Below the pieces are notes generated by a model that had not been told where the DNA came from, searched no databases, and saw nothing but the letters and a program-made list of their open reading frames with translations. A stretch of DNA of 24,415 bases from the IMG/VR virus record IMGVR_UViG_3300023257_000110, positions 1-24,415 of that record; one strand, 5' to 3'. The stretch comes from a virus. Of this stretch, positions 3,694 through 17,951 are shown in pieces; the first letter of the stretch is position 1; each line of letters opens with the position of its first letter. The translations under genes were made by a program, and so were the position numbers.

Positions 3694-3702
3694 GCATTAA
3701 AA
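3674..3702. repeat. 29-bp direct repeat, copy 1
   Basis: Bases 3674-3702 are identical to 5229-5257. Both copies cover the stop codon and the sequence just past the 3' end of a leftward gene, here the methyltransferase. The two copies bracket the KilA-N and methyltransferase genes. Confidence 0.85.
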
Positions 3703-4464
3703 TAGATTGCCTTGCTGGTTTCGCGTGGCTTCAGCAATGCGCTTCTCTGCTATCTTGAAGTATTCAGCGTCAAGCTCGATGCCGATAAAGTTCCTATTGA
3801 GATTAACACATGCAACGCCGGTTGTTCCGCTTCCCATGGTGAAATCTAAAACTGTTTCATTTTCATTGGTGTATGTCTTGATCAGGTATTCCATTAAGTC
3901 AACGTTTTTTTGCGTTGGGTGTAAAGAACCGTTTTTTTTATCATTGTGTTTTGGAGTATTAAAATTAATTGTGTTTATAGGAAATTTTATTTTTGTATCC
4001 CTATAACTGTTTTTAAACCCGTTATTGCCGTAAACGCTTGTTTTTTTAATTTTATTCTTTCCACCCTTGTTTGATTTTTTATCTGCAATTCTCATTTGTG
4101 GATTATAGCTTATTGTTTTTAAAGAGAAAATAATTATATCTTCGCTAATGTTAATGGGTCTATATTTAGCAACTCCAAAATTAGAGCCATGATCTTTAAT
4201 CCATTTCCAATCATATTTGTACTCTTTAATATTTGACATTCTCAAAACACTACTAAACGGTTCACTGCCGAATAATACTATTGGAGTTCTGTCTTTCCTT
4301 AGTTGTTTTACTCTTTGCCACATTTCATCAAAAGGAATGACAGAATCCCATTTGCAGGATGTAGTACCGTATGGCGGGTCGGTTATGATTGCATCAACCT
4401 TGACGCCATCAGCTATCAATTTATCCATTATTGCCAAACATTCGCCATGATATAGATTACGCAT
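3697..4464 (-). CDS. DNA N6-adenine methyltransferase (N6_N4_Mtase, beta-class order)
   Basis: This 255-residue enzyme would transfer methyl from S-adenosylmethionine to adenine (less likely cytosine N4) in DNA. The catalytic motif IV, DPPYG, is at residues 29-33. The SAM-binding motif I, DFTMGSGTTG, comes late at about 207-216, and HPTQK precedes it, giving the order typical of beta-class N6_N4_Mtase enzymes. A typical target-recognition region lies between them. That region (about 3900-4200) is lysine/asparagine-rich and clearly more A+T-rich than its neighbours, suggesting transfer. A strong AGGAGG site precedes the ATG. No cognate restriction gene is present, so it is probably a solitary protective or regulatory methylase. 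Confidence 0.9.
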   Translation of the reverse strand: MRNLYHGECLAIMDKLIADGVKVDAIITDPPYGTTSCKWDSVIPFDEMWQRVKQLRKDRTPIVLFGSEPFSSVLRMSNIKEYKYDWKWIKDHGSNFGVAKYRPINISEDIIIFSLKTISYNPQMRIADKKSNKGGKNKIKKTSVYGNNGFKNSYRDTKIKFPINTINFNTPKHNDKKNGSLHPTQKNVDLMEYLIKTYTNENETVLDFTMGSGTTGVACVNLNRNFIGIELDAEYFKIAEKRIAEATRNQQGNLF

Positions 4465-5228: not shown

Positions 5229-5257
5229 CGCCACACTGAAACTATCAAGCATTAAAA
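5229..5257. repeat. 29-bp direct repeat, copy 2
   Basis: This copy is identical to 3674-3702 and covers the stop codon and the sequence just past the 3' end of the mom-like gene. The start-to-start distance between the copies is 1555 bp. Confidence 0.85.
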
Positions 5258-5890
5258 CAATATCCCTTGAGATGTCGTTTTGTAGCTGGCATCGTATCGT
5301 TGCGTTTCGCCTTTAGGGTATTCAAGGATAGGATATTTTAAAGCATTCTGAAACCGTTTTCTCTCTTTTTTTGATCCACAGAAATATACATATCGGTGTT
5401 TTGCTGATCGCTGTTCCCTGTTTTTAGAATAATCTTGCCCTTTGTCGTAGTGTCTAGAGTGCTTTCCTTCGCCTGAACCTATATCTGTACGCTCTTTCGT
5501 TGTTCCAGTAAATAGGAAATTACAAGCCTGATATATTTTGCCTATGTGTCCCATAGAAGTATCAGCGTATGAAACAATAATAGTCGCAGTCCTGAGATAG
5601 GACAAACATTTTGACACGAACCATGACGTAATATTTATTTCATCTGAATCAACACACAGCCTGTTTAGTTCTTTTACAGCCCATGAGAATTCTTCTCCAC
5701 ATATGCCGATACACAGGTTCCGACTTGCTGGCGCGCCGAATGTACAAACTCCGACTAGTTTATCAACATCATACAACCCAAAGCAGTGACCTGTTGCTAT
5801 TGACGGGATACGATGGGCATAATGTTTTTTCAGTATCCACTCGTAAGCCTCTTGAGATTTCATTCGTTTGATGGAAAAGGTTTCTTTCAT
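5252..5890 (-). CDS. mom: Mom-like GNAT-fold DNA adenine modification protein
   Basis: This 212-residue protein resembles phage Mu Mom, which converts adenine in DNA to a carbamoylmethyl-type derivative and protects the phage from restriction. Visible Mom-family features are the KKHYAHRIPSIATGHCFGLY segment near residues 21-40, a VGVCTFGAPASR segment, an ELNRLCVDSD segment, and a strongly conserved SYADTSMGHIGKIYQACNF stretch near 107-125 followed by TGTTKERTD. Length matches the family. The start overlaps the end of a 50-residue zinc-ribbon gene, echoing the com-mom arrangement in Mu. The downstream methyltransferase and this enzyme together form a counter-restriction block. Confidence in the family is high. 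Confidence 0.88.
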   Translation of the reverse strand: MKETFSIKRMKSQEAYEWILKKHYAHRIPSIATGHCFGLYDVDKLVGVCTFGAPASRNLCIGICGEEFSWAVKELNRLCVDSDEINITSWFVSKCLSYLRTATIIVSYADTSMGHIGKIYQACNFLFTGTTKERTDIGSGEGKHSRHYDKGQDYSKNREQRSAKHRYVYFCGSKKERKRFQNALKYPILEYPKGETQRYDASYKTTSQGILF

Positions 5891-9081: not shown

Positions 9082-9157
9082 AACAGGGTGACTGGAGTTG
9101 GATACCAGCACGGTATCATAAGCCGTTTCGACGTGGGTTCGAATCCCACCCCTGTTA
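9082..9157 (+). tRNA. tRNA with anticodon CAT (Met, or Ile2 after lysidine modification)
   Basis: Acceptor arms AACAGGG (9082-9088) and CCCTGTT (9150-9156) pair fully, with discriminator A at 9157. The D arm is CTGG/CCAG with loop AGTTGGATA. The anticodon arm is ACGGT/GCCGT with loop ATCATAA, giving anticodon CAT. The variable loop is five bases, and the T arm is GTGGG TTCGAAT CCCAC. Three bases, not two, separate the acceptor and D stems, which is unusual. CCA is not encoded. ATA codons are frequent in this phage, so a tRNA-Ile2 reading ATA is attractive, but Met cannot be excluded from sequence alone. Confidence 0.8.
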
Positions 9158-11336: not shown

Positions 11337-12107
11337 ATGGCAAAGACAGAAGTTGTTGACAATACCGTCATCAAGATCAAAATGGAAAGGGTTTCTTATT
11401 GTGTACTTGGCAAAACGCCAATCATTCTTAACCGACTATCTGAGAAATCAAAGCGCGATCTGCTATTGCCTCCGAAAAGTAAAAGCAGAGCAGAAAAAGA
11501 ATCCACACTGAAACAGAATCCCTATGTCGAGTTTAGGAATTCACCGTATACCCTTCCTGACGGAGAACCAACATTCATTGCTCATCTTGCAACAGCATTC
11601 AAAAAGGCTATCTCCTGCACAGCGGTTGATATCCCTGGAGCGAAAAAGGCACAAATGGGGAGGCTGATGTGGGTCGAGGGTGAAAGAATAGGAATCTACG
11701 GTATCCCGAAACTGTTTATGGCAATCACAAGGGATGCCGGAATGACAAAAACGCCGCGTGTCAGAACAAGGTCAATTATTCCTGAATGGGCATGTAGGGT
11801 CGTTGTCTCATTCCCGACACCAATACTACAAGAGGTCACGGTGTCTAATCTGTTCGCTGCTGCCGGGATGATTCAGGGAGTTGGTGACTGGAGGCCAGAA
11901 AAGGGATCGGGGTCATTCGGTCAGTTTGAGTTGGTATCAGAGGACAATATTAATTTTCAACGTATTATAGCCGAAGGCGGTAGGGCCGTACAGCAAGAGT
12001 ATATGAACAACCCAGAGCCTTATGATTCAGAAACAGAAGATATGTTAGCGTGGTTTGGCCCCGAAGTTGAGCGTCGAGGATTCAAAAACATAGAAGGAGT
12101 AAACTAA
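11337..12107 (+). CDS. Conserved phage protein with glycine-rich loop, function unknown
   Basis: This 256-residue protein, which I recognise as a recurring phage family without a function, has conserved stretches: a GKTPIILNRLSEKSKRDLLL segment near 25-44, a KKAISCTAVDIPGAKKAQMG segment near 89-108, a TPRVRTRSIIPEWACRV segment, and a C-terminal GVGDWRPEKGSGSFGQFEL motif near 181-199. The last resembles the glycine-rich loop of RAMP-fold RNA-binding proteins, but this is only a pattern match. It starts after AGGAG and is coupled (TAATG) to the next gene. Both occur together before the cargo/late region. Confidence 0.75.
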   Translation: MAKTEVVDNTVIKIKMERVSYCVLGKTPIILNRLSEKSKRDLLLPPKSKSRAEKESTLKQNPYVEFRNSPYTLPDGEPTFIAHLATAFKKAISCTAVDIPGAKKAQMGRLMWVEGERIGIYGIPKLFMAITRDAGMTKTPRVRTRSIIPEWACRVVVSFPTPILQEVTVSNLFAAAGMIQGVGDWRPEKGSGSFGQFELVSEDNINFQRIIAEGGRAVQQEYMNNPEPYDSETEDMLAWFGPEVERRGFKNIEGVN

Positions 12108-12583
12108 TGGATAAAACAACAGTAGAAGAAAGAATGGTTGAACTATACCGGATGAATGGCAATTATATTACTCCTGACATCGTTATTAAGGATGCTAAAG
12201 AGCCGGATTCACCATTGCATTCACGGTTTGTCTGGGATATGGAAGCGGCAGCAATGACAACGTGGAGACAACAAGCCAGAATGCTTATAAGTCGGTGTAT
12301 CCCTGTTAATATTGAAACCGAGGATATTGTATTTTCAGGTGCAGTTAATAGGGTATTTATCGAAGATCCAAGGAAGGAAGGGAACAACCAAGGGTACATA
12401 ATGCGAGCAGAAGTCAGGACGGATCATGACCTTGCCGTGATCGTAATGAAAGCAGAGATAACACGCATTGAGGCGGCGATACATAGGGCGATGGAAGTCG
12501 CCGAGGATATTGGGCTTGCTGATGATATCGATATTGTGAAGCGTGCAGTAATAAGGTTAAAAGAAGCGGTTCCGACTGCTTAA
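12107..12583 (+). CDS. Conserved phage protein, partner of the preceding gene
   Basis: This 158-residue protein begins MDKTTVEERMVELYRMNGNY. An AKEPDSPLHSRFVWDMEAAA segment near residues 29-48 is typical of a phage family that usually follows the glycine-rich-loop gene. The C-terminal half is long, helical and alternately charged. The start overlaps the previous stop, implying coupled synthesis and perhaps a complex. No function is known to me. It is the last gene before the GG-periodic array. Confidence 0.72.
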   Translation: MDKTTVEERMVELYRMNGNYITPDIVIKDAKEPDSPLHSRFVWDMEAAAMTTWRQQARMLISRCIPVNIETEDIVFSGAVNRVFIEDPRKEGNNQGYIMRAEVRTDHDLAVIVMKAEITRIEAAIHRAMEVAEDIGLADDIDIVKRAVIRLKEAVPTA

Positions 12584-12597
12584 AGATATTATGTCAA

Positions 12598-12811
12598 GGA
12601 ATGGCGCGGACTGGAACGACGGGGAATGGAGAGGCGCGGAATGGACATGCAAGGCTGGCCAGGACCGGAGAGGAAGGACAAGGACGGGATTGGCTTGGAG
12701 AGGATTGGCGCGGCTGGCAAGGGCAGGACCGGCAGGGAATGGCTCGGAACGGCCCGGAGTGTCAAGGCTGGAGCGGATGGGAACGGATAGTGATGGCTCG
12801 GCAAGGAGAGG
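12598..12811 (+). repeat. Pentanucleotide-periodic array, GG every 5 bases
   Basis: Over about 214 bases, GG falls every five bases at nearly every step, with only a few one-base slips (near 12657, 12676, 12716 and 12770-12780) and a few lost G's (12618, 12648, 12761, 12790). The other three bases vary, with A or C favoured after GG. The unit is thus about GG(A/C)NN, some 43 units. Two reading frames stay open through it only because of the low-complexity sequence, and neither has a ribosome binding site. It ends two bases before the -35 box of the cargo promoter. Confidence 0.85.
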
Positions 12812-12812
12812 T

Positions 12813-12841
12813 TTGACAGGCAATCATGAAGGTAGTATAGT
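12813..12841 (+). promoter_or_regulatory. Promoter of the sugar-transport/nonulosonate cassette
   Basis: A perfect TTGACA (12813-12818) and TATAGT (12836-12841) are 17 bases apart. The predicted start is near 12848. It directly abuts the GG-periodic array, so the array could act as an upstream binding region. Confidence 0.82.
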
Positions 12842-12862
12842 TATATCGGAGATCAACCGGCG

Positions 12863-12940
12863 GCACTTCAGGATGTCGTTGGGGGATTCTATCCTTCATT
12901 TAGCCCACGGCACAACCTGAAGTGCAACGTGGGCTTTTTA
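12863..12940 (+). ncRNA. Cargo-operon leader: terminator overlapped by a potential pseudoknot
   Basis: The terminator stem is AGCCCACG (12902-12909) with CGTGGGCT (12928-12935), followed by TTTTTATTTT. Its 18-base loop holds CCTGAAGTGC (12916-12925), perfectly complementary to GCACTTCAGG (12863-12872) upstream. The two helices can form a pseudoknot or compete. A further hairpin lies between them (around GGATTCTATCC). The AGGAG site of the binding-protein gene is eight bases past the T run. This looks like a switch controlling read-through into the transporter genes, or a small RNA. Confidence 0.6.
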
Positions 12941-12958
12941 TTTTACAGGAGAAAATGG

Positions 12959-14224
12959 ATGAAGAAACTTGTTTTTCTGGTAATGGTGGCATTGCTTGCC
13001 TTTACCATGTATAGTGCGGGACAACCCGAATCGCAGACCTTGCGGATTCTGCATTCCGGGAATGCCGTATTTGAGAACGGGACGACTTTCATTGGAGAAG
13101 CAACCCGGCTATTCAATTTGAAATATCCCGACATCACAGTTGAGGAAAGCAAAATTGACTTGTCGGATGGGTCAGCACTGACCATGGATGCCATGATTGC
13201 CGCCGGTATGCCACCTAATATTTATATGGATACAATGGTAAGAGCGTCAAAATATATGATTCCTGAATTCGCTTTGCCGTTGGATGACTATATCAGCGAT
13301 CTTGATAAATACCAGCCGGGGATCCTCGATCCATACCGAAAAGACGGTAAACTGATGGCATTACCACAAGCCGGGGGCGCGCAAGCCATGGCGATCAATC
13401 TGGATCTGATGGATGATATTGGCTACACCGTGCCTGATGACTGGACAATCGTTGATTTCCTGAAGATGGCCGGCATGGTAAAACATAAATACAATGGCGA
13501 GAAATGGGCAACAGGGATGTTTGCCGCGAATCAATCCGGGGATTATCTAATCAATAACTGGTTTGCTGCGTTTGGTGTGGATTTCTACGGTCCGGGCGGT
13601 TATGATGTTTCAACAATTGCCGATACCGGTGGTGAGGTAGTTTATCAGTTTTTCAACTTATTGAATGAAAACGGGTACATACCTCCGAACAGCGCCGCCC
13701 TATGTGATGACGATTATGTGATGCAATGGTCTGATGGAAACCTTGCCGCAACAGCATTTTTCCCATCGTGGATGAAACCATACTGGGATGCATCGATGAA
13801 ACAAGGGACGATAAAAGAACCGTTCAGGGTAAAATACGTTCCATTTCCTGCAATGCCAGGGGTGAGCGGTGTACCTGTCTATTTTTCCAATGCTGCAATT
13901 ATCGTCAATAACACCGGGACTGATATTGATACTCCTGCCGCGTATTATGCTGAATTACTCAATGGCGCATGGGCACAGAATGAATTAGTAAAGCAAGGGA
14001 TCATGTCAACCCGGACAGATGCAATTCCAAACCAAGATCCGTATCTTCTGCAAGTTGCTGACATCATGGCAAAGAATGGGATTCAGGATGTTGGTATCAC
14101 TGACCCGCGATTTACCGAAAGGCGGTCACTACAGTTTCCGATCCTGCAAAAGTTGTTAAATGGCAAAATCAGCCCTGCTGACGCAATTGCCGAATATCAA
14201 GAAAAGTTGACATCTGTAAAATGA
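12959..14224 (+). CDS. ABC sugar transporter, extracellular solute-binding protein (CUT1-like)
   Basis: ATG 12959 is seven bases after AGGAG and gives 421 residues. It begins with a signal peptide (MKKLVFLVMVALLAFTMYSA) that lacks a lipobox cysteine and instead reads AGQPES, so it should be cleaved by signal peptidase I and be periplasmic or released. The mature part has the family-1 binding-protein layout: TLRILHSG strand start, an ITVEESKIDLSDGSA region, a KLMALPQAGGAQAMAINLDL segment typical of sugar-binding proteins, and a late PAYYAELLNGAWAQNELVKQ helix region. The substrate is unknown. It is the first gene of the cargo operon, coupled to two permeases. Family confidence is high. Confidence 0.9.
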   Translation: MKKLVFLVMVALLAFTMYSAGQPESQTLRILHSGNAVFENGTTFIGEATRLFNLKYPDITVEESKIDLSDGSALTMDAMIAAGMPPNIYMDTMVRASKYMIPEFALPLDDYISDLDKYQPGILDPYRKDGKLMALPQAGGAQAMAINLDLMDDIGYTVPDDWTIVDFLKMAGMVKHKYNGEKWATGMFAANQSGDYLINNWFAAFGVDFYGPGGYDVSTIADTGGEVVYQFFNLLNENGYIPPNSAALCDDDYVMQWSDGNLAATAFFPSWMKPYWDASMKQGTIKEPFRVKYVPFPAMPGVSGVPVYFSNAAIIVNNTGTDIDTPAAYYAELLNGAWAQNELVKQGIMSTRTDAIPNQDPYLLQVADIMAKNGIQDVGITDPRFTERRSLQFPILQKLLNGKISPADAIAEYQEKLTSVK

Positions 14225-15027
14225 GCCTAATACTGATTGCACCACTGGCGATACTCTGGATTGTATTCTTCGCGTGGCCTATGGTGCAGTTGGTTATTAT
14301 TTCACTACAGCATACCAATTTCATGAGGTCGGAGTTTATCGGCCTCGATAACTATATCAAAACATTTACTGATCAAACCTTCTGGCTGGCGGTTACCAAT
14401 TCTCTGTCATACGCCGCACTGATGATTCCATGCACTGTTTTTATAAGTTTTACACTTGCCTGTTTTCTGTCGAGAATGTCAAAGCCGTGGCGTAATGCTG
14501 CCAGAATAGGGTTTTATATTCCATCACTATCAGCAGGGATAATTATAGCAGGATTCTGGAAGTGGTTATTTCATGTGAATGGCGCTGTCAATTGGGTTCT
14601 GGGAGCAAACATATCATGGTTTGCCCAAGGGATAACGGCCATTCCAGTGATTGCCGGGATAGTTATACTCAGTGCTATGGGTAGTGCATTGATTATGACA
14701 CTCGCAACTGTGGAAGCGGTTGATCCAGGGATATTAGACTCGGCGAGAATTGACGGGGCATCATGGCGGCAGATAAAATACAGGATCATCATGCCGACGA
14801 TTGCGCCGGTGCTGGTTCTGCTTGCACTGCTTTCATGGATTGGAGCATGGCAGATTATTGAGACACCTATGATGCTTGCCCCACAGGACTATGCGGCAAC
14901 GTTGACATATCATATTTATAGGCAAGGGTTTCTGTTCGGGAATTATGGACTTGCCAGTGCACAGGCTGTCATTTTATTGGGTATTATTGGCGGACTTGCT
15001 CTGCTTAAAACTAAGGTAAAGCAATGA
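14221..15027 (+). CDS. ABC sugar transporter permease, MalF/UgpA-like
   Basis: This 268-residue integral membrane protein has about six hydrophobic segments, the first at residues 3-27. The EAA loop that docks the ATPase is clear near residues 172-195 (DSARIDGASWRQIKYRIIMP), with the conserved D-G-A and terminal P. N-terminal features such as FIGLDNYIKTFTD are typical of CUT1 permease A. The start overlaps the binding-protein stop (ATGA), so the subunits are made together. It would form the channel with the next gene product. The C-terminus ends shortly after the last helix, with no extra domain. Confidence 0.92.
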   Translation: MSLILIAPLAILWIVFFAWPMVQLVIISLQHTNFMRSEFIGLDNYIKTFTDQTFWLAVTNSLSYAALMIPCTVFISFTLACFLSRMSKPWRNAARIGFYIPSLSAGIIIAGFWKWLFHVNGAVNWVLGANISWFAQGITAIPVIAGIVILSAMGSALIMTLATVEAVDPGILDSARIDGASWRQIKYRIIMPTIAPVLVLLALLSWIGAWQIIETPMMLAPQDYAATLTYHIYRQGFLFGNYGLASAQAVILLGIIGGLALLKTKVKQ

Positions 15028-15836
15028 AGAAAGTATGGCTTATAATCATGATGGCACTTGTATTGCTTCCAGTCTGGTTTATGGTGGTATATTCGCTTGA
15101 GGATGTGCAGGGAGTTCTACGGATGCCACCACGACTAATCCCGAATACGCCGACAATAGAGAATTTCAGGTATATCTCAAACTGGCCATTATTGCGGTGG
15201 GTTCGCAATTCTGCAATCGCGGTGGTTGCAACTGTGATTCTCTCTGTAATTGTGTATGCCATGGCGGGCTATGCGTTCGCTTTTAAAAAGATTCCACATG
15301 AAAAATTGATATGGGCGGCGTTTATTGCGGGGATGATGGTTCCCAGGATGAGCCTGATGATTCCAATGTATATCACTATAAGGCAAGTGGGGATTTCTGG
15401 AACCATGGCGGCGGTTGTCCTGACATCAATATATCAGCCGGTCAATCTATATCTGACAAGGAATTACATGATGCAAATCCCTAAAGCCATTATAGAATCA
15501 GCTACCATTGACGGAGCATCTGAATGGACTATACTATATAGGGTGATAATTCCGCTTGCATTGCCTGTCTTAACGTTGATTGCGCTATTAACCGGGATAT
15601 TTATATTGAGTGATTATGTCTGGCAATCGTTAGTATTTCAATTTGGAGACACCCAGACTTTGGTAGTCGGGATTATGAGAAAGGTATTGACACGAGGTGG
15701 CGGGGAACTGAATATCAATCCACTAGGACGGCAAATGGCAGTCGGGGTAATCTTGTTATTCCCACTGCTTACTATATTTTTGATAGCAAATAAATATTTT
15801 ATAACCGGAATTTCTGTAGGGGGAGTTAAGGAATGA
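15024..15836 (+). CDS. ABC sugar transporter permease, MalG/UgpE-like
   Basis: This 270-residue protein has six predicted hydrophobic segments and an EAA loop near 156-178 (ESATIDGASEWTILYRVIIP). The segment PPRLIPNTPTIENFRYI after the first helix and the C-terminal KYFITGISVGGVKE end are typical of CUT1 permease B, whose C-tail reaches the ATPase. Overlaps of four bases with both neighbours place it firmly in the operon. No ATPase gene follows, so it must use a host MsmX/UgpC/MalK-type ATPase if it works. Family confidence is high. Confidence 0.93.
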   Translation: MKKVWLIIMMALVLLPVWFMVVYSLEDVQGVLRMPPRLIPNTPTIENFRYISNWPLLRWVRNSAIAVVATVILSVIVYAMAGYAFAFKKIPHEKLIWAAFIAGMMVPRMSLMIPMYITIRQVGISGTMAAVVLTSIYQPVNLYLTRNYMMQIPKAIIESATIDGASEWTILYRVIIPLALPVLTLIALLTGIFILSDYVWQSLVFQFGDTQTLVVGIMRKVLTRGGGELNINPLGRQMAVGVILLFPLLTIFLIANKYFITGISVGGVKE

Positions 15837-16609
15837 TAACAGCATTGATAACAGCACGGGGCGGTTCTACAAGAATACCAGGAAAGAATATATATCCAAT
15901 CTGCGGCCATCCATTAGTTGCATGGTCTATTATGCAGGCTTTGGCGTGTAAGCAAGTCGATATGGTTATTCTCACCACGGATGATGATGAGATCGCGGAG
16001 GTCGGGGAAAGATACGGGGCGCATGTAGTTCGACGGCCTGTCTGGGAAAATGGAATTACTGCTGGAGTCGCATTTAAACATGCTATGGAACAGGTGGGCC
16101 CATGCGATCATATCCTGACAATGCTACCAACAAGCCCGCTTAAAAAACCGGATGATCTGGATAATATGATCAGTCTATATCTTGAGCTTGAGACCAACGT
16201 CATTGTTACTGCTGCACCGATTAAAGAGACCTGTATTTATTTAAATGATCAATCATTTGAGCAGAGGTATGGAGACAGCCATAATGAACCAGGTAAGAGG
16301 CAGGATCAAAAACATTTCACAGCACGGAATCATATTTTCGACAAGTTTTGGAATTATTCGAAACTCTGCGGAGGCTGGGGAATTGCTGAATATAATTGGT
16401 CAATGGAGCAATGGGGAAATAACCCAAAACTTGACATAACTATAGATAAACGCGAAATTGACACAGAGACAATAAAACACTGTTATGCAGTCGAAGAATG
16501 GCAGTGCTATGAACTGGATTATCCCGAAGATATCCCTATTGTGGAATGTTTCATGGAGAAATTTATTTTGAAAGGCCGAGACGCAAAGGACGTATACAGT
16601 GGAAACTGA
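15833..16609 (+). CDS. CMP-nonulosonate (N-acylneuraminate-type) cytidylyltransferase
   Basis: This 258-residue enzyme resembles NeuA/PseF/LegF, which join CTP with a sialic-acid-like sugar to give a CMP-activated donor. The nucleotide-binding signature ITARGGSTRIPGKN occupies residues 6-19 and is followed by PICGHPLVAWSI. Further matches are ILTTDDDEIAEVGERYGAHV near 46-65 and MLPTSPLKKPDDLD near 96-109. The C-terminal half is less typical, with a tryptophan-rich stretch. It overlaps the permease gene upstream and the DUF115 gene downstream. The family also includes Kdo and glycerol-type cytidylyltransferases, so the exact sugar is unsure. Confidence 0.87.
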   Translation: MITALITARGGSTRIPGKNIYPICGHPLVAWSIMQALACKQVDMVILTTDDDEIAEVGERYGAHVVRRPVWENGITAGVAFKHAMEQVGPCDHILTMLPTSPLKKPDDLDNMISLYLELETNVIVTAAPIKETCIYLNDQSFEQRYGDSHNEPGKRQDQKHFTARNHIFDKFWNYSKLCGGWGIAEYNWSMEQWGNNPKLDITIDKREIDTETIKHCYAVEEWQCYELDYPEDIPIVECFMEKFILKGRDAKDVYSGN

Positions 16610-17951
16610 ATTCACATATAAAAGCAATTCAACACAGTACAATCAGGCAACCGATAAAGCACAGACAATTCATGAAGAATACAACGCAACCCGAAACTGG
16701 CCGATAATTCAGGATCGTATAAAGGCCGGCACTGCATATGATATCAGCGCAGCCGGCAAAGCGAACAAGCCGTGTATCATAGTTGGATCAGGTGGAAGCC
16801 TGGACGAAACATTACCGCACTTAAAAGACTGGGAGGGCGGTATTATCTGTAGCACGAGCCATGCATTGACACTTGTGAAATATGGCGCTCCACCGACTCA
16901 CATTTATGCACTTGATCCGTTCTGCACTTTTGAGGAAATCCAGGGAGTAGACTGGTCGCAATACGATACAAAGCTAATTACTACCCCGACAGTATGGCCG
17001 ACTTTGATTGAAAAATGGCCGAATGACATTATTCTATATCGTCAATCCAGAGGGAAAAGCGACAGTTTCTATGCGAATATGCTAAATATCATGTACTCGG
17101 ATCGGGAATGTAAAGACGGACAACTCCGCATGGCAGCATTTGAACCACAAATCAAAACAGAGGTCACGCTATTTGCTTGCTCACCACCTGGACAATTGTT
17201 TTCAGCTCAGGTACTTGGATATACGAACATATTTCTAACCGGGGTTGATTTCGGGTATACTCACGGTAAAAGCCGGTTCACAGAATGGACATGCGAAAAC
17301 GGCGAGTGGATTGAACATCAGAAACCGTATGACGCATTACCTCAGGACGTAAAAGACCGCGCAGTTATGTCAAATAATGGGATAGAAATGGATGTTGTAC
17401 ACACTTTCTATAAAAAGAACATGATATCAGCCTGGAGACTGGGATTACAAAGTTGCTGGACAATCGGGGAAACAACGATTACAGAGATGCCGAAAGTTGA
17501 TATAGAACATGTTATCAGAAAGCAGGGGAATCATATAAAGGGCTACTCAACACAACAGATTGCTGATATATCAGAAACCTATTTAGCAGCTGTAGGCGCT
17601 TTCGTAGTTGCGTCAGATCAAGGCTACTCATTCGTTGAAAGCGAAAAGCCAGAAGAGGAATTGCTAAAATATATGGAAGGGATGAGAAGTCAATATATTT
17701 GCGGAACGTGCAATTCTCAAATGGTATCCGAAAATGAAGAGGAAAGAGAAATAGAAGAATGTCCGGTTTGCAAGGCGAAAACACTACACAGACGGTTCAA
17801 TATCGATATCGAGGGGAACATGAAACGCATCAGGAAGCGGATAAAGGCCGCTAATAAGCTGAAAATAGGCAAGGAAAAGCCGGTTGTTGATCCAATGAGA
17901 AACGTTAAGGCGGTATATTCTGAATCAATGCGTGATGTGAATAAATCATGA
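16599..17951 (+). CDS. DUF115/Maf-like protein with C-terminal zinc ribbon, probable glycosyltransferase
   Basis: GTG 16599, eight bases after AAAGGA, gives 450 residues. The DUF115 (MptE-like) core begins with KPCIIVGSGGSLDETLPHLK at 57-76, then a STSHALTLVKYGAPPTHIYALDP region, and later NIFLTGVDFGYTHGKSRF near 208-225. In flagellar Maf proteins this domain transfers nonulosonic acids to flagellin. Archaeal MptE instead pyrophosphorylates a pterin. The adjacent CMP-nonulosonate synthetase favours the first role. Near residues 367-391 two CxxC pairs form a zinc ribbon not usual in the family, followed by a very basic tail. Confidence 0.82.
   Translation: METEFTYKSNSTQYNQATDKAQTIHEEYNATRNWPIIQDRIKAGTAYDISAAGKANKPCIIVGSGGSLDETLPHLKDWEGGIICSTSHALTLVKYGAPPTHIYALDPFCTFEEIQGVDWSQYDTKLITTPTVWPTLIEKWPNDIILYRQSRGKSDSFYANMLNIMYSDRECKDGQLRMAAFEPQIKTEVTLFACSPPGQLFSAQVLGYTNIFLTGVDFGYTHGKSRFTEWTCENGEWIEHQKPYDALPQDVKDRAVMSNNGIEMDVVHTFYKKNMISAWRLGLQSCWTIGETTITEMPKVDIEHVIRKQGNHIKGYSTQQIADISETYLAAVGAFVVASDQGYSFVESEKPEEELLKYMEGMRSQYICGTCNSQMVSENEEEREIEECPVCKAKTLHRRFNIDIEGNMKRIRKRIKAANKLKIGKEKPVVDPMRNVKAVYSESMRDVNKS

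What the first reader, a model, noticed from the sequence alone, without database searches (positions are those of the whole stretch)
12598..12811. Non-coding array with GG every five bases abutting the cargo promoter
Seen: about 43 pentamers of the form GG(A/C)NN, nearly in phase over 214 bp, ending two bases before TTGACA. The unit is not conserved apart from GG, so this is selection for periodicity, not recent tandem copying. Five bp is half a helical turn, so GG steps alternate on opposite DNA faces. Possible roles: binding a filament-forming protein, DNA curvature upstream of the promoter, a G-rich RNA that sponges a GGA-binding regulator such as CsrA, or a recombination or packaging mark. 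I recall vaguely similar GGNNN tracts in other phages, often annotated as spurious proteins.
Basis: partly seen in the sequence, partly recalled or inferred. Interest (0 to 1): 0.82.

Follow-up and report, generated by a model that had tools for sequence, protein, structure and literature searches.

The report
Phage VIPR guide-RNA array with Vipr gene
The odd run of GG every five bases is very probably a guide-RNA array of VIPR, a recently described CRISPR-like system that phages carry and seem to use against rival phages, here in a form with unusual fixed letters.

Summary
The period-5 GG tract is real: lag-5 GG pairs 30 against 9.4±2.7, at most 19 in 2000 shuffles. It is not an isolated array. 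It starts 15 bases after a two-gene operon. The first gene (11337-12107) belongs to PHROG 4652. A profile of that family hits PDB chain 36pp_D, 'SUSP1 Vipr protein', at E=7e-37, and its predicted fold matches CRISPR Csm3/Cas7 RAMPs. The second gene (12107-12583, PHROG 15946) is a predicted winged-helix accessory. Homologous operons carry same-strand GG-pentamer arrays: 72 of 79 loci chosen by the accessory alone, with none in 454,805 bases farther away. This matches VIPR (PMC13142463, 2026 preprint): Vipr bound to RNAs of GGY/NN pentamers whose NN pairs read DNA with a one-base skip. The window array splits into four guide-sized blocks (11, 11, 10, 8 pentamers) at GGCT slips. Its third base is A 23, C 15, G 2, T 0 of 40 instead of pyrimidine; its boundary tetramer is GGCT, where all 49 other testable loci mostly use GGCA. 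Decoded targets gave no match above a decoy. New member of a known kind.

The parts
11337..12107 (+). vipr: RAMP-fold protein, 256 aa, G-rich loop GVGDWRPEKGSGSFG (residues 181-195)
   Evidence: PHROG 4652 E 1.1e-9; 76 of 77 members of alignment A3 match PHROG 4652; profile hits 36pp_D 'SUSP1 Vipr protein' E 7.1e-37, window protein alone only E 0.04; AlphaFold2 pLDDT 89.7, pTM 0.85; Foldseek best rows Csm3/Cas7-type RAMPs E 1.6e-5; VIA-align Z 10.6, rmsd 3.8, 137 aligned
12107..12583 (+). vap-like accessory gene, 158 aa, predicted winged helix plus helical hairpin
   Evidence: PHROG 15946 in 17 of 17 members of A1; no Pfam family; model pLDDT 87.3; only weak fold matches, N-terminal part to winged-helix DNA-binding proteins at Z about 5
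12598..12811 (+). vrRNA-type GG-pentamer array, consensus GG(A/C)NN
12598..12656 (+). block 1: 11 pentamers + GGCT
12657..12715 (+). block 2: 11 pentamers + GGCT
12716..12769 (+). block 3: 10 pentamers + GGCT
12770..12811 (+). block 4: 8 pentamers + GG
12813..12841 (+). sigma-70-like promoter TTGACA-17-TATAGT just after the array; probably not part of the guide array, could drive the next RNA and the cargo
   Evidence: 11 of 12 consensus positions; consensus match only
12846..12945 (+). structured RNA ending in a terminator-like hairpin and T run; relation to the array unknown
   Evidence: -39.8 kcal/mol, z -4.59; no Rfam family at gathering score here, best weak match E 0.16

Best explanation
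The tract is the guide-RNA (vrRNA) array of a VIPR system in a phage. Shown here by sequence: a Vipr-family RAMP gene, an accessory gene and the array form one same-strand unit, and this unit recurs in many phages. Inferred from the VIPR preprint: the array is transcribed, Vipr subunits coat it along the GG pentamers, the GG-N triplet anchors the protein, and the two variable bases of each pentamer pair with DNA with one skipped target base between pairs. Each block of 8-11 pentamers between GGCT slips would then be one guide of about 16-22 read bases. The complex would bind and silence genes of rival mobile elements, helped by the accessory DNA-binding protein. Which genes this phage targets is not known.
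For: Vipr: profile of 77 homologues hits 36pp_D 'SUSP1 Vipr protein' E 7.1e-37, aligned over 181 profile positions including the G-loop; predicted fold is RAMP, the 50 Foldseek rows shown are all CRISPR RAMP chains, Z 10.6. Array-selected loci: 81 of 120 have a Vipr homologue within 1.5 kb, 80 of 81 on the same strand; of 65 with long diverse arrays 54 have Vipr. Protein-selected loci: 72 of 79 (by vap) and 31 of 41 (by Vipr) have an array within 1.5 kb; 121 arrays same strand, 1 opposite; 0 array bases in 648,423 far bases; 0 arrays in 707,587 shuffled bases. Six of six named phage records opened (of 33 matched) have the array beside the same two genes: Saal, Gorge, Quico, ODay, UmaThurman, Cy-LDV1. 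Guide-sized blocks: pentamers between slips peak at 10-12 over 136 loci; the preprint reports 9-16 repeats per vrRNA. Positions 4-5 hypervariable.
Against: Third base is A/C and never T, while the preprint's usual form is GGY; it allows 'a related consensus' in a figure I could not see. The window Vipr alone reaches 36pp_D only at E 0.04. Decoded targets of three blocks: 7, 0 and 0 exact viral hits, against 3 for a permuted decoy, and the decoy hits were also in-frame; block 2 had 0 hits in bacterial genomes. Block 4 has only 8 pentamers, below the 9-16 reported. No separate 3' tail after each block was found. 39 of 120 array-selected loci gave no Vipr match and 10 of 41 Vipr-selected loci gave no array. 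No expression data.
Confidence: 0.93

Rival explanations
1. A non-targeting RNA scaffold: the Vipr-like protein coats the array as an RNA filament for another purpose (for example autoregulation of the operon, like TRAP on GAGNN repeats), without DNA targeting.
For: Period-5 trinucleotide plus two free bases is also how TRAP sites look (recalled, no call). No target found above the decoy.
Against: The protein is a RAMP by fold and by profile match to SUSP1 Vipr, for which DNA targeting was shown in the preprint. Hypervariable NN in otherwise conserved pentamers fits guides better than a fixed binding site.
Confidence: 0.05
2. CsrA/RsmA sponge: transcribed GGA motifs titrate a host regulator.
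For: 23 of 40 window units have A as third base.
Against: In 136 non-redundant Vipr loci the third base is mostly C in 93 and T in 10. The linked gene is Vipr.
Confidence: 0.01
3. DNA-level element: replication or recombination site, R-loop zone, packaging mark or curved promoter DNA.
For: Strict strand orientation and G-rich non-template strand; Erf and Gam-like genes lie in the window.
Against: Arrays track Vipr/vap; 0 array bases far from them in protein-selected loci. One-base slips break helical phase.
Confidence: 0.005
4. A repetitive protein-coding gene (for example the 109-codon frame 12591-12920).
For: Two forward frames are open through the window array.
Against: No Pfam match; 49 of 103 long arrays of Vipr loci have stops in all three forward frames; one-base slips shift the frame.
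Confidence: 0.005

Closest known systems
VIPR (Viral Interference Programmable Repeat) systems, PMC13142463
   Same: Vipr RAMP protein, accessory gene, adjacent same-strand pentamer array with constant GG and hypervariable NN, phage setting, guide-sized blocks
   Different: Third base A/C, not pyrimidine; block boundary GGCT; blocks joined directly without a visible tail; targets unknown. Type (of seven) not assigned: the supplement was not available
CRISPR class 1 effectors (Csm3/Cas7 RAMPs)
   Same: RAMP fold with G-rich loop; expected filament on guide RNA
   Different: No repeat-spacer array; only one RAMP gene seen in the locus; guide expected to be read non-contiguously
TRAP (trp RNA-binding attenuation protein; recalled)
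   Same: RNA read as trinucleotide plus two free bases, period 5
   Different: Different protein; no targeting; fixed sites

Membership tests
VIPR | Vipr protein: RAMP homologue with RRM core and G-loop | tested here: met
   Profile match to 36pp_D E 7.1e-37; RAMP fold Z 10.6; G-loop residues 181-195; thumb domain not examined
VIPR | Adjacent tandem pentamers, constant GG triplet (GGY or a related consensus) alternating with hypervariable NN | tested here: met
   Met as a related consensus, GG(A/C)NN; strict GGY is not met (T 0, C 15 of 40). 32 of 119 new GGA-selected loci have Vipr within 1.5 kb, all same strand
VIPR | 9-16 repeats per vrRNA | tested here: inconclusive
   Blocks of 11, 11, 10 and 8 pentamers; true RNA ends unknown
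VIPR | Accessory vap gene | tested here: met
   PHROG 15946 gene between vipr and array; the same family lies in 19 of 120 array-selected loci, and 72 of 79 loci chosen by it have an array within 1.5 kb. That it equals a vap of the preprint is inferred from position and predicted fold
VIPR | Encoded mainly by phages and prophages | tested here: met
   Window has terminase, portal and capsid genes
VIPR | Invariable structured 3' tail | tested here: inconclusive
   None between blocks; a structured RNA follows at 12846 behind its own promoter-like site
VIPR | NN read targets under the 1-nt skip rule | tested here: inconclusive
   Block 1: 7 hits in one holin-like gene family, decoy 3 hits; blocks 2 and 3 none
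VIPR | vrRNA expressed and bound by Vipr | not testable with these tools
   No RNA or binding data
CRISPR-Cas | Array of conserved repeats separated by unique spacers, with cas genes | tested here: not met
   Unit conserved only at GG; no cas family among the window proteins scanned, which were not all of its ORFs

The most novel reading that the evidence does not exclude
The pentamer's third base is an evolvable part of the VIPR code. Lineages switch between a GGY form, a nearly pure GGR form (C and T close to 0) and, in this phage, a mixed GG(A/C) form with its own boundary signal GGCT. The window would then be a distinct subtype whose Vipr has changed its base-3 recognition, so that its guides are kept apart from those of co-infecting VIPR phages.
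Probability: 0.2. Interest if true: 0.65.

Novelty: new member of a known kind. Interest (0 to 1): 0.5.

Why it matters
VIPR was described only in 2026 and is proposed as an ancestor of CRISPR. This window adds a member with a deviant array. The survey around it shows that the constant triplet is not always GGY: 25 of 136 non-redundant Vipr loci are GGA-dominated, by at least 6 separate changes that well-supported branches force. The 136 are not a random sample, since one scan asked for GGA. If base 3 is read by the protein, this is a natural series for finding the residues that set guide recognition and for building systems that do not cross-talk. It also turns tracts that look like spurious repeat proteins into a recognisable RNA array.

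Tried and rejected
Targets. Decoding blocks 1-3 by the one-base-skip rule, leaving out units that lost GG, gave 7, 0 and 0 exact matches in viral contigs. The 7 are variants of one holin-like gene (PF05105 at E 2e-4 and 8e-4, just under the curated cut-off), in the wobble frame, but units 5 and 11 mismatch wholly or in part in all of them. A permuted-order decoy gave 3 hits, also in-frame in long open frames, so I do not claim the holin as a target. Block 2 had 0 hits in bacterial genomes. In fetched loci the best matches of the window blocks were no better at skip 1 than at other skips, except block 1 in the loci it had itself fetched.

Skip rule over all guides. 839 unique guides against my own masked loci: best match with at most 2 mismatches for 20, 41, 24 and 33 guides at skips 0, 1, 2, 3. 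Only a mild excess for skip 1. Two guides (L135, L139) match two motifs of one Sak4-like gene in L195 in the wobble frame with 1 of 18 mismatches; unconfirmed.

Fold of the accessory protein. No confident PDB match (best Foldseek E 1.6; most VIA rows are the helical hairpin); profile against PDB sequences E 0.65 or worse. No PADLOC family for vipr or vap.

Earlier ideas dropped: annealing-protein (Erf/RecT) landing site, R-loop origin, TRAP-like ring, CsrA sponge. blastn of the array in phages found only chance pieces. Host not found: nearest portal proteins under 30% identity, solute-binding cargo protein no match in plasmids.

Literature. Searches for GGNNN, for pentanucleotide repeat with phage genome, and for GGCNN found nothing on point; one on RecT annealing proteins served a dropped idea, listing seen only. 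The preprint came from searching the PDB molecule name. I read its main text in all four parts, not its supplement. Later searches found no other VIPR paper.

Full report
OBSERVATION. The tract at 12598-12811 is real. Lag-5 GG pairs number 30 against 9.4 (sd 2.7, maximum 19) in 2000 dinucleotide shuffles; the chain score is 27 against at most 7 in 2000 shuffles. It is confined to the + strand and to this place. An identical copy stands in a second contig (L215). The phase is broken three times by one base, each time at GGCT, which gives blocks of 11, 11, 10 and 8 pentamers.

WHAT LIES BESIDE IT. A scan of viral contigs for eleven GGNNN units in a row plus a closing GG hit its limit at 120 stretches. 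Among these, 19 encode a relative of the window gene 12107-12583 (PHROG 15946), all on the array strand. The gene before it, 11337-12107 (PHROG 4652), is the commoner partner: 81 of 120 loci have it within 1.5 kb of an array, 80 of 81 on the same strand. Of the 65 loci with long, diverse arrays 54 have it. The 39 without it include simple repeats of few distinct units and short contig pieces; some may hold relatives too distant for my profile.

REVERSE TEST. Loci chosen by protein only: by the accessory, 72 of 79 have an array within 1.5 kb; by Vipr, 31 of 41. In these two sets 121 arrays lie on the gene's strand and 1 on the other, and no array base lies in 648,423 bases farther off; 707,587 shuffled bases gave none. 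Six of six named phage records that I opened, of 33 matched, show the same arrangement. In phage Gorge the two genes are annotated as one (gp54).

IDENTITY. A profile of 77 PHROG 4652 proteins hits one PDB sequence strongly: 36pp_D, 'SUSP1 Vipr protein', E 7.1e-37. The window protein alone reaches it only at E 0.04. The AlphaFold2 model (pLDDT 89.7, pTM 0.85) matches CRISPR RAMPs: the 50 Foldseek rows shown are all RAMP chains, best E 1.6e-5, and VIA-align gives Z 10.6, rmsd 3.8, 137 residues for a Csm subunit. The conserved GVGDWRPEKGSGSFG fits the RAMP G-loop (my reading). The preprint PMC13142463 (main text read) describes VIPR: a Vipr RAMP, an accessory gene, and vrRNAs of 9-16 pentamers with conserved GGY and hypervariable NN. 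In it the NN pairs read double-stranded DNA with a one-base skip in the target, bound DNA is silenced, and natural targets are rival phages and satellites. It names seven types, some with staggered arrays, and 'GGY/NN motifs, or a related consensus'. The window meets the sequence-level features of this system.

HOW IT MOST LIKELY WORKS. Shown here: gene order, strand, periodicity, block structure, predicted RAMP fold. Inferred from the preprint: transcription, coating by Vipr, non-contiguous reading, silencing of rivals. The accessory protein models as an N-terminal winged-helix-like part with a helical hairpin, but its fold matches are weak, so DNA binding is a guess that agrees with the preprint's remark that types II, VI and VII have predicted DNA-binding accessories.

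WHAT IS UNUSUAL. (1) Third base: A 23, C 15, G 2, T 0 of 40. Among 136 non-redundant Vipr loci, 93 are C-dominated, 10 T, 8 mixed and 25 A, the window among them. The other 24 A-type loci hold at most 14% C, while the window holds 37% by the same count. The A number is inflated because one scan asked for GGA, but that scan gave an independent check: 33 of 119 new loci have Vipr, 32 within 1.5 kb of a GGA run, all same strand. A-type loci do not form one clade: 14 changes by parsimony, at least 6 forced by starred branches, fewer than in any of 500 shuffles (quick tree, many open branches). The window's nearest relatives L216 and L217 are C-dominated. (2) Boundary: of 50 loci with three or more one-base slips, 49 use GGCA most and only the window uses GGCT. 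Whether either has a function is untested.

TARGETS. Not found. Block 1 matched a holin-like gene family in 7 contigs over 18 decoded bases, in the wobble frame, but a permuted decoy matched 3 contigs, also in-frame. Blocks 2 and 3 matched nothing. Block 4 was too short to scan.

NOVELTY. The system is in print as a preprint, so this is a new member of a known kind. The mixed GG(A/C) triplet and GGCT boundary may mark a variant; the preprint's supplementary figures, which I could not see, may already show a related consensus. My literature searches found no other account.

Noticed in passing
window 12929-17951: Cargo between array and terminase: a solute-binding-like protein (no Pfam match), two permease-like genes (first PF00528), a cytidylyltransferase (PF02348) and an MptE-like protein (PF01973), suggesting transport or surface-glycan changes in the host.
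   Followed up: no
window 5252-5890: Mom-family DNA modification protein (PF25680, E 2.3e-36), near a DNA methyltransferase at 3697-4464.
   Followed up: no
window 12813-12945: Strong promoter match followed by a stable structured RNA (z -4.59) with a terminator-like end, no Rfam family at gathering score; two loop segments look able to pair with each other (seen by eye).
   Followed up: partly
window 9082-9157: tRNA gene (Rfam RF00005, 42 bits).
   Followed up: no
L206 5212-6429 (Mycobacterium phage Gorge gp54): Vipr and accessory annotated as one fused 1218-base gene; the related phage Saal has two genes there.
   Followed up: no
L269, L310, L338, L340 and others: Large Vipr arrays with an almost pure GGA/GGG triplet (C and T near 0), up to 233 units in one chain.
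   Followed up: partly
L195 near 8488 and 8713: Guides of two different phages (L135, L139) match two motifs of one Sak4-like gene in the wobble frame with 1 of 18 mismatches.
   Followed up: no
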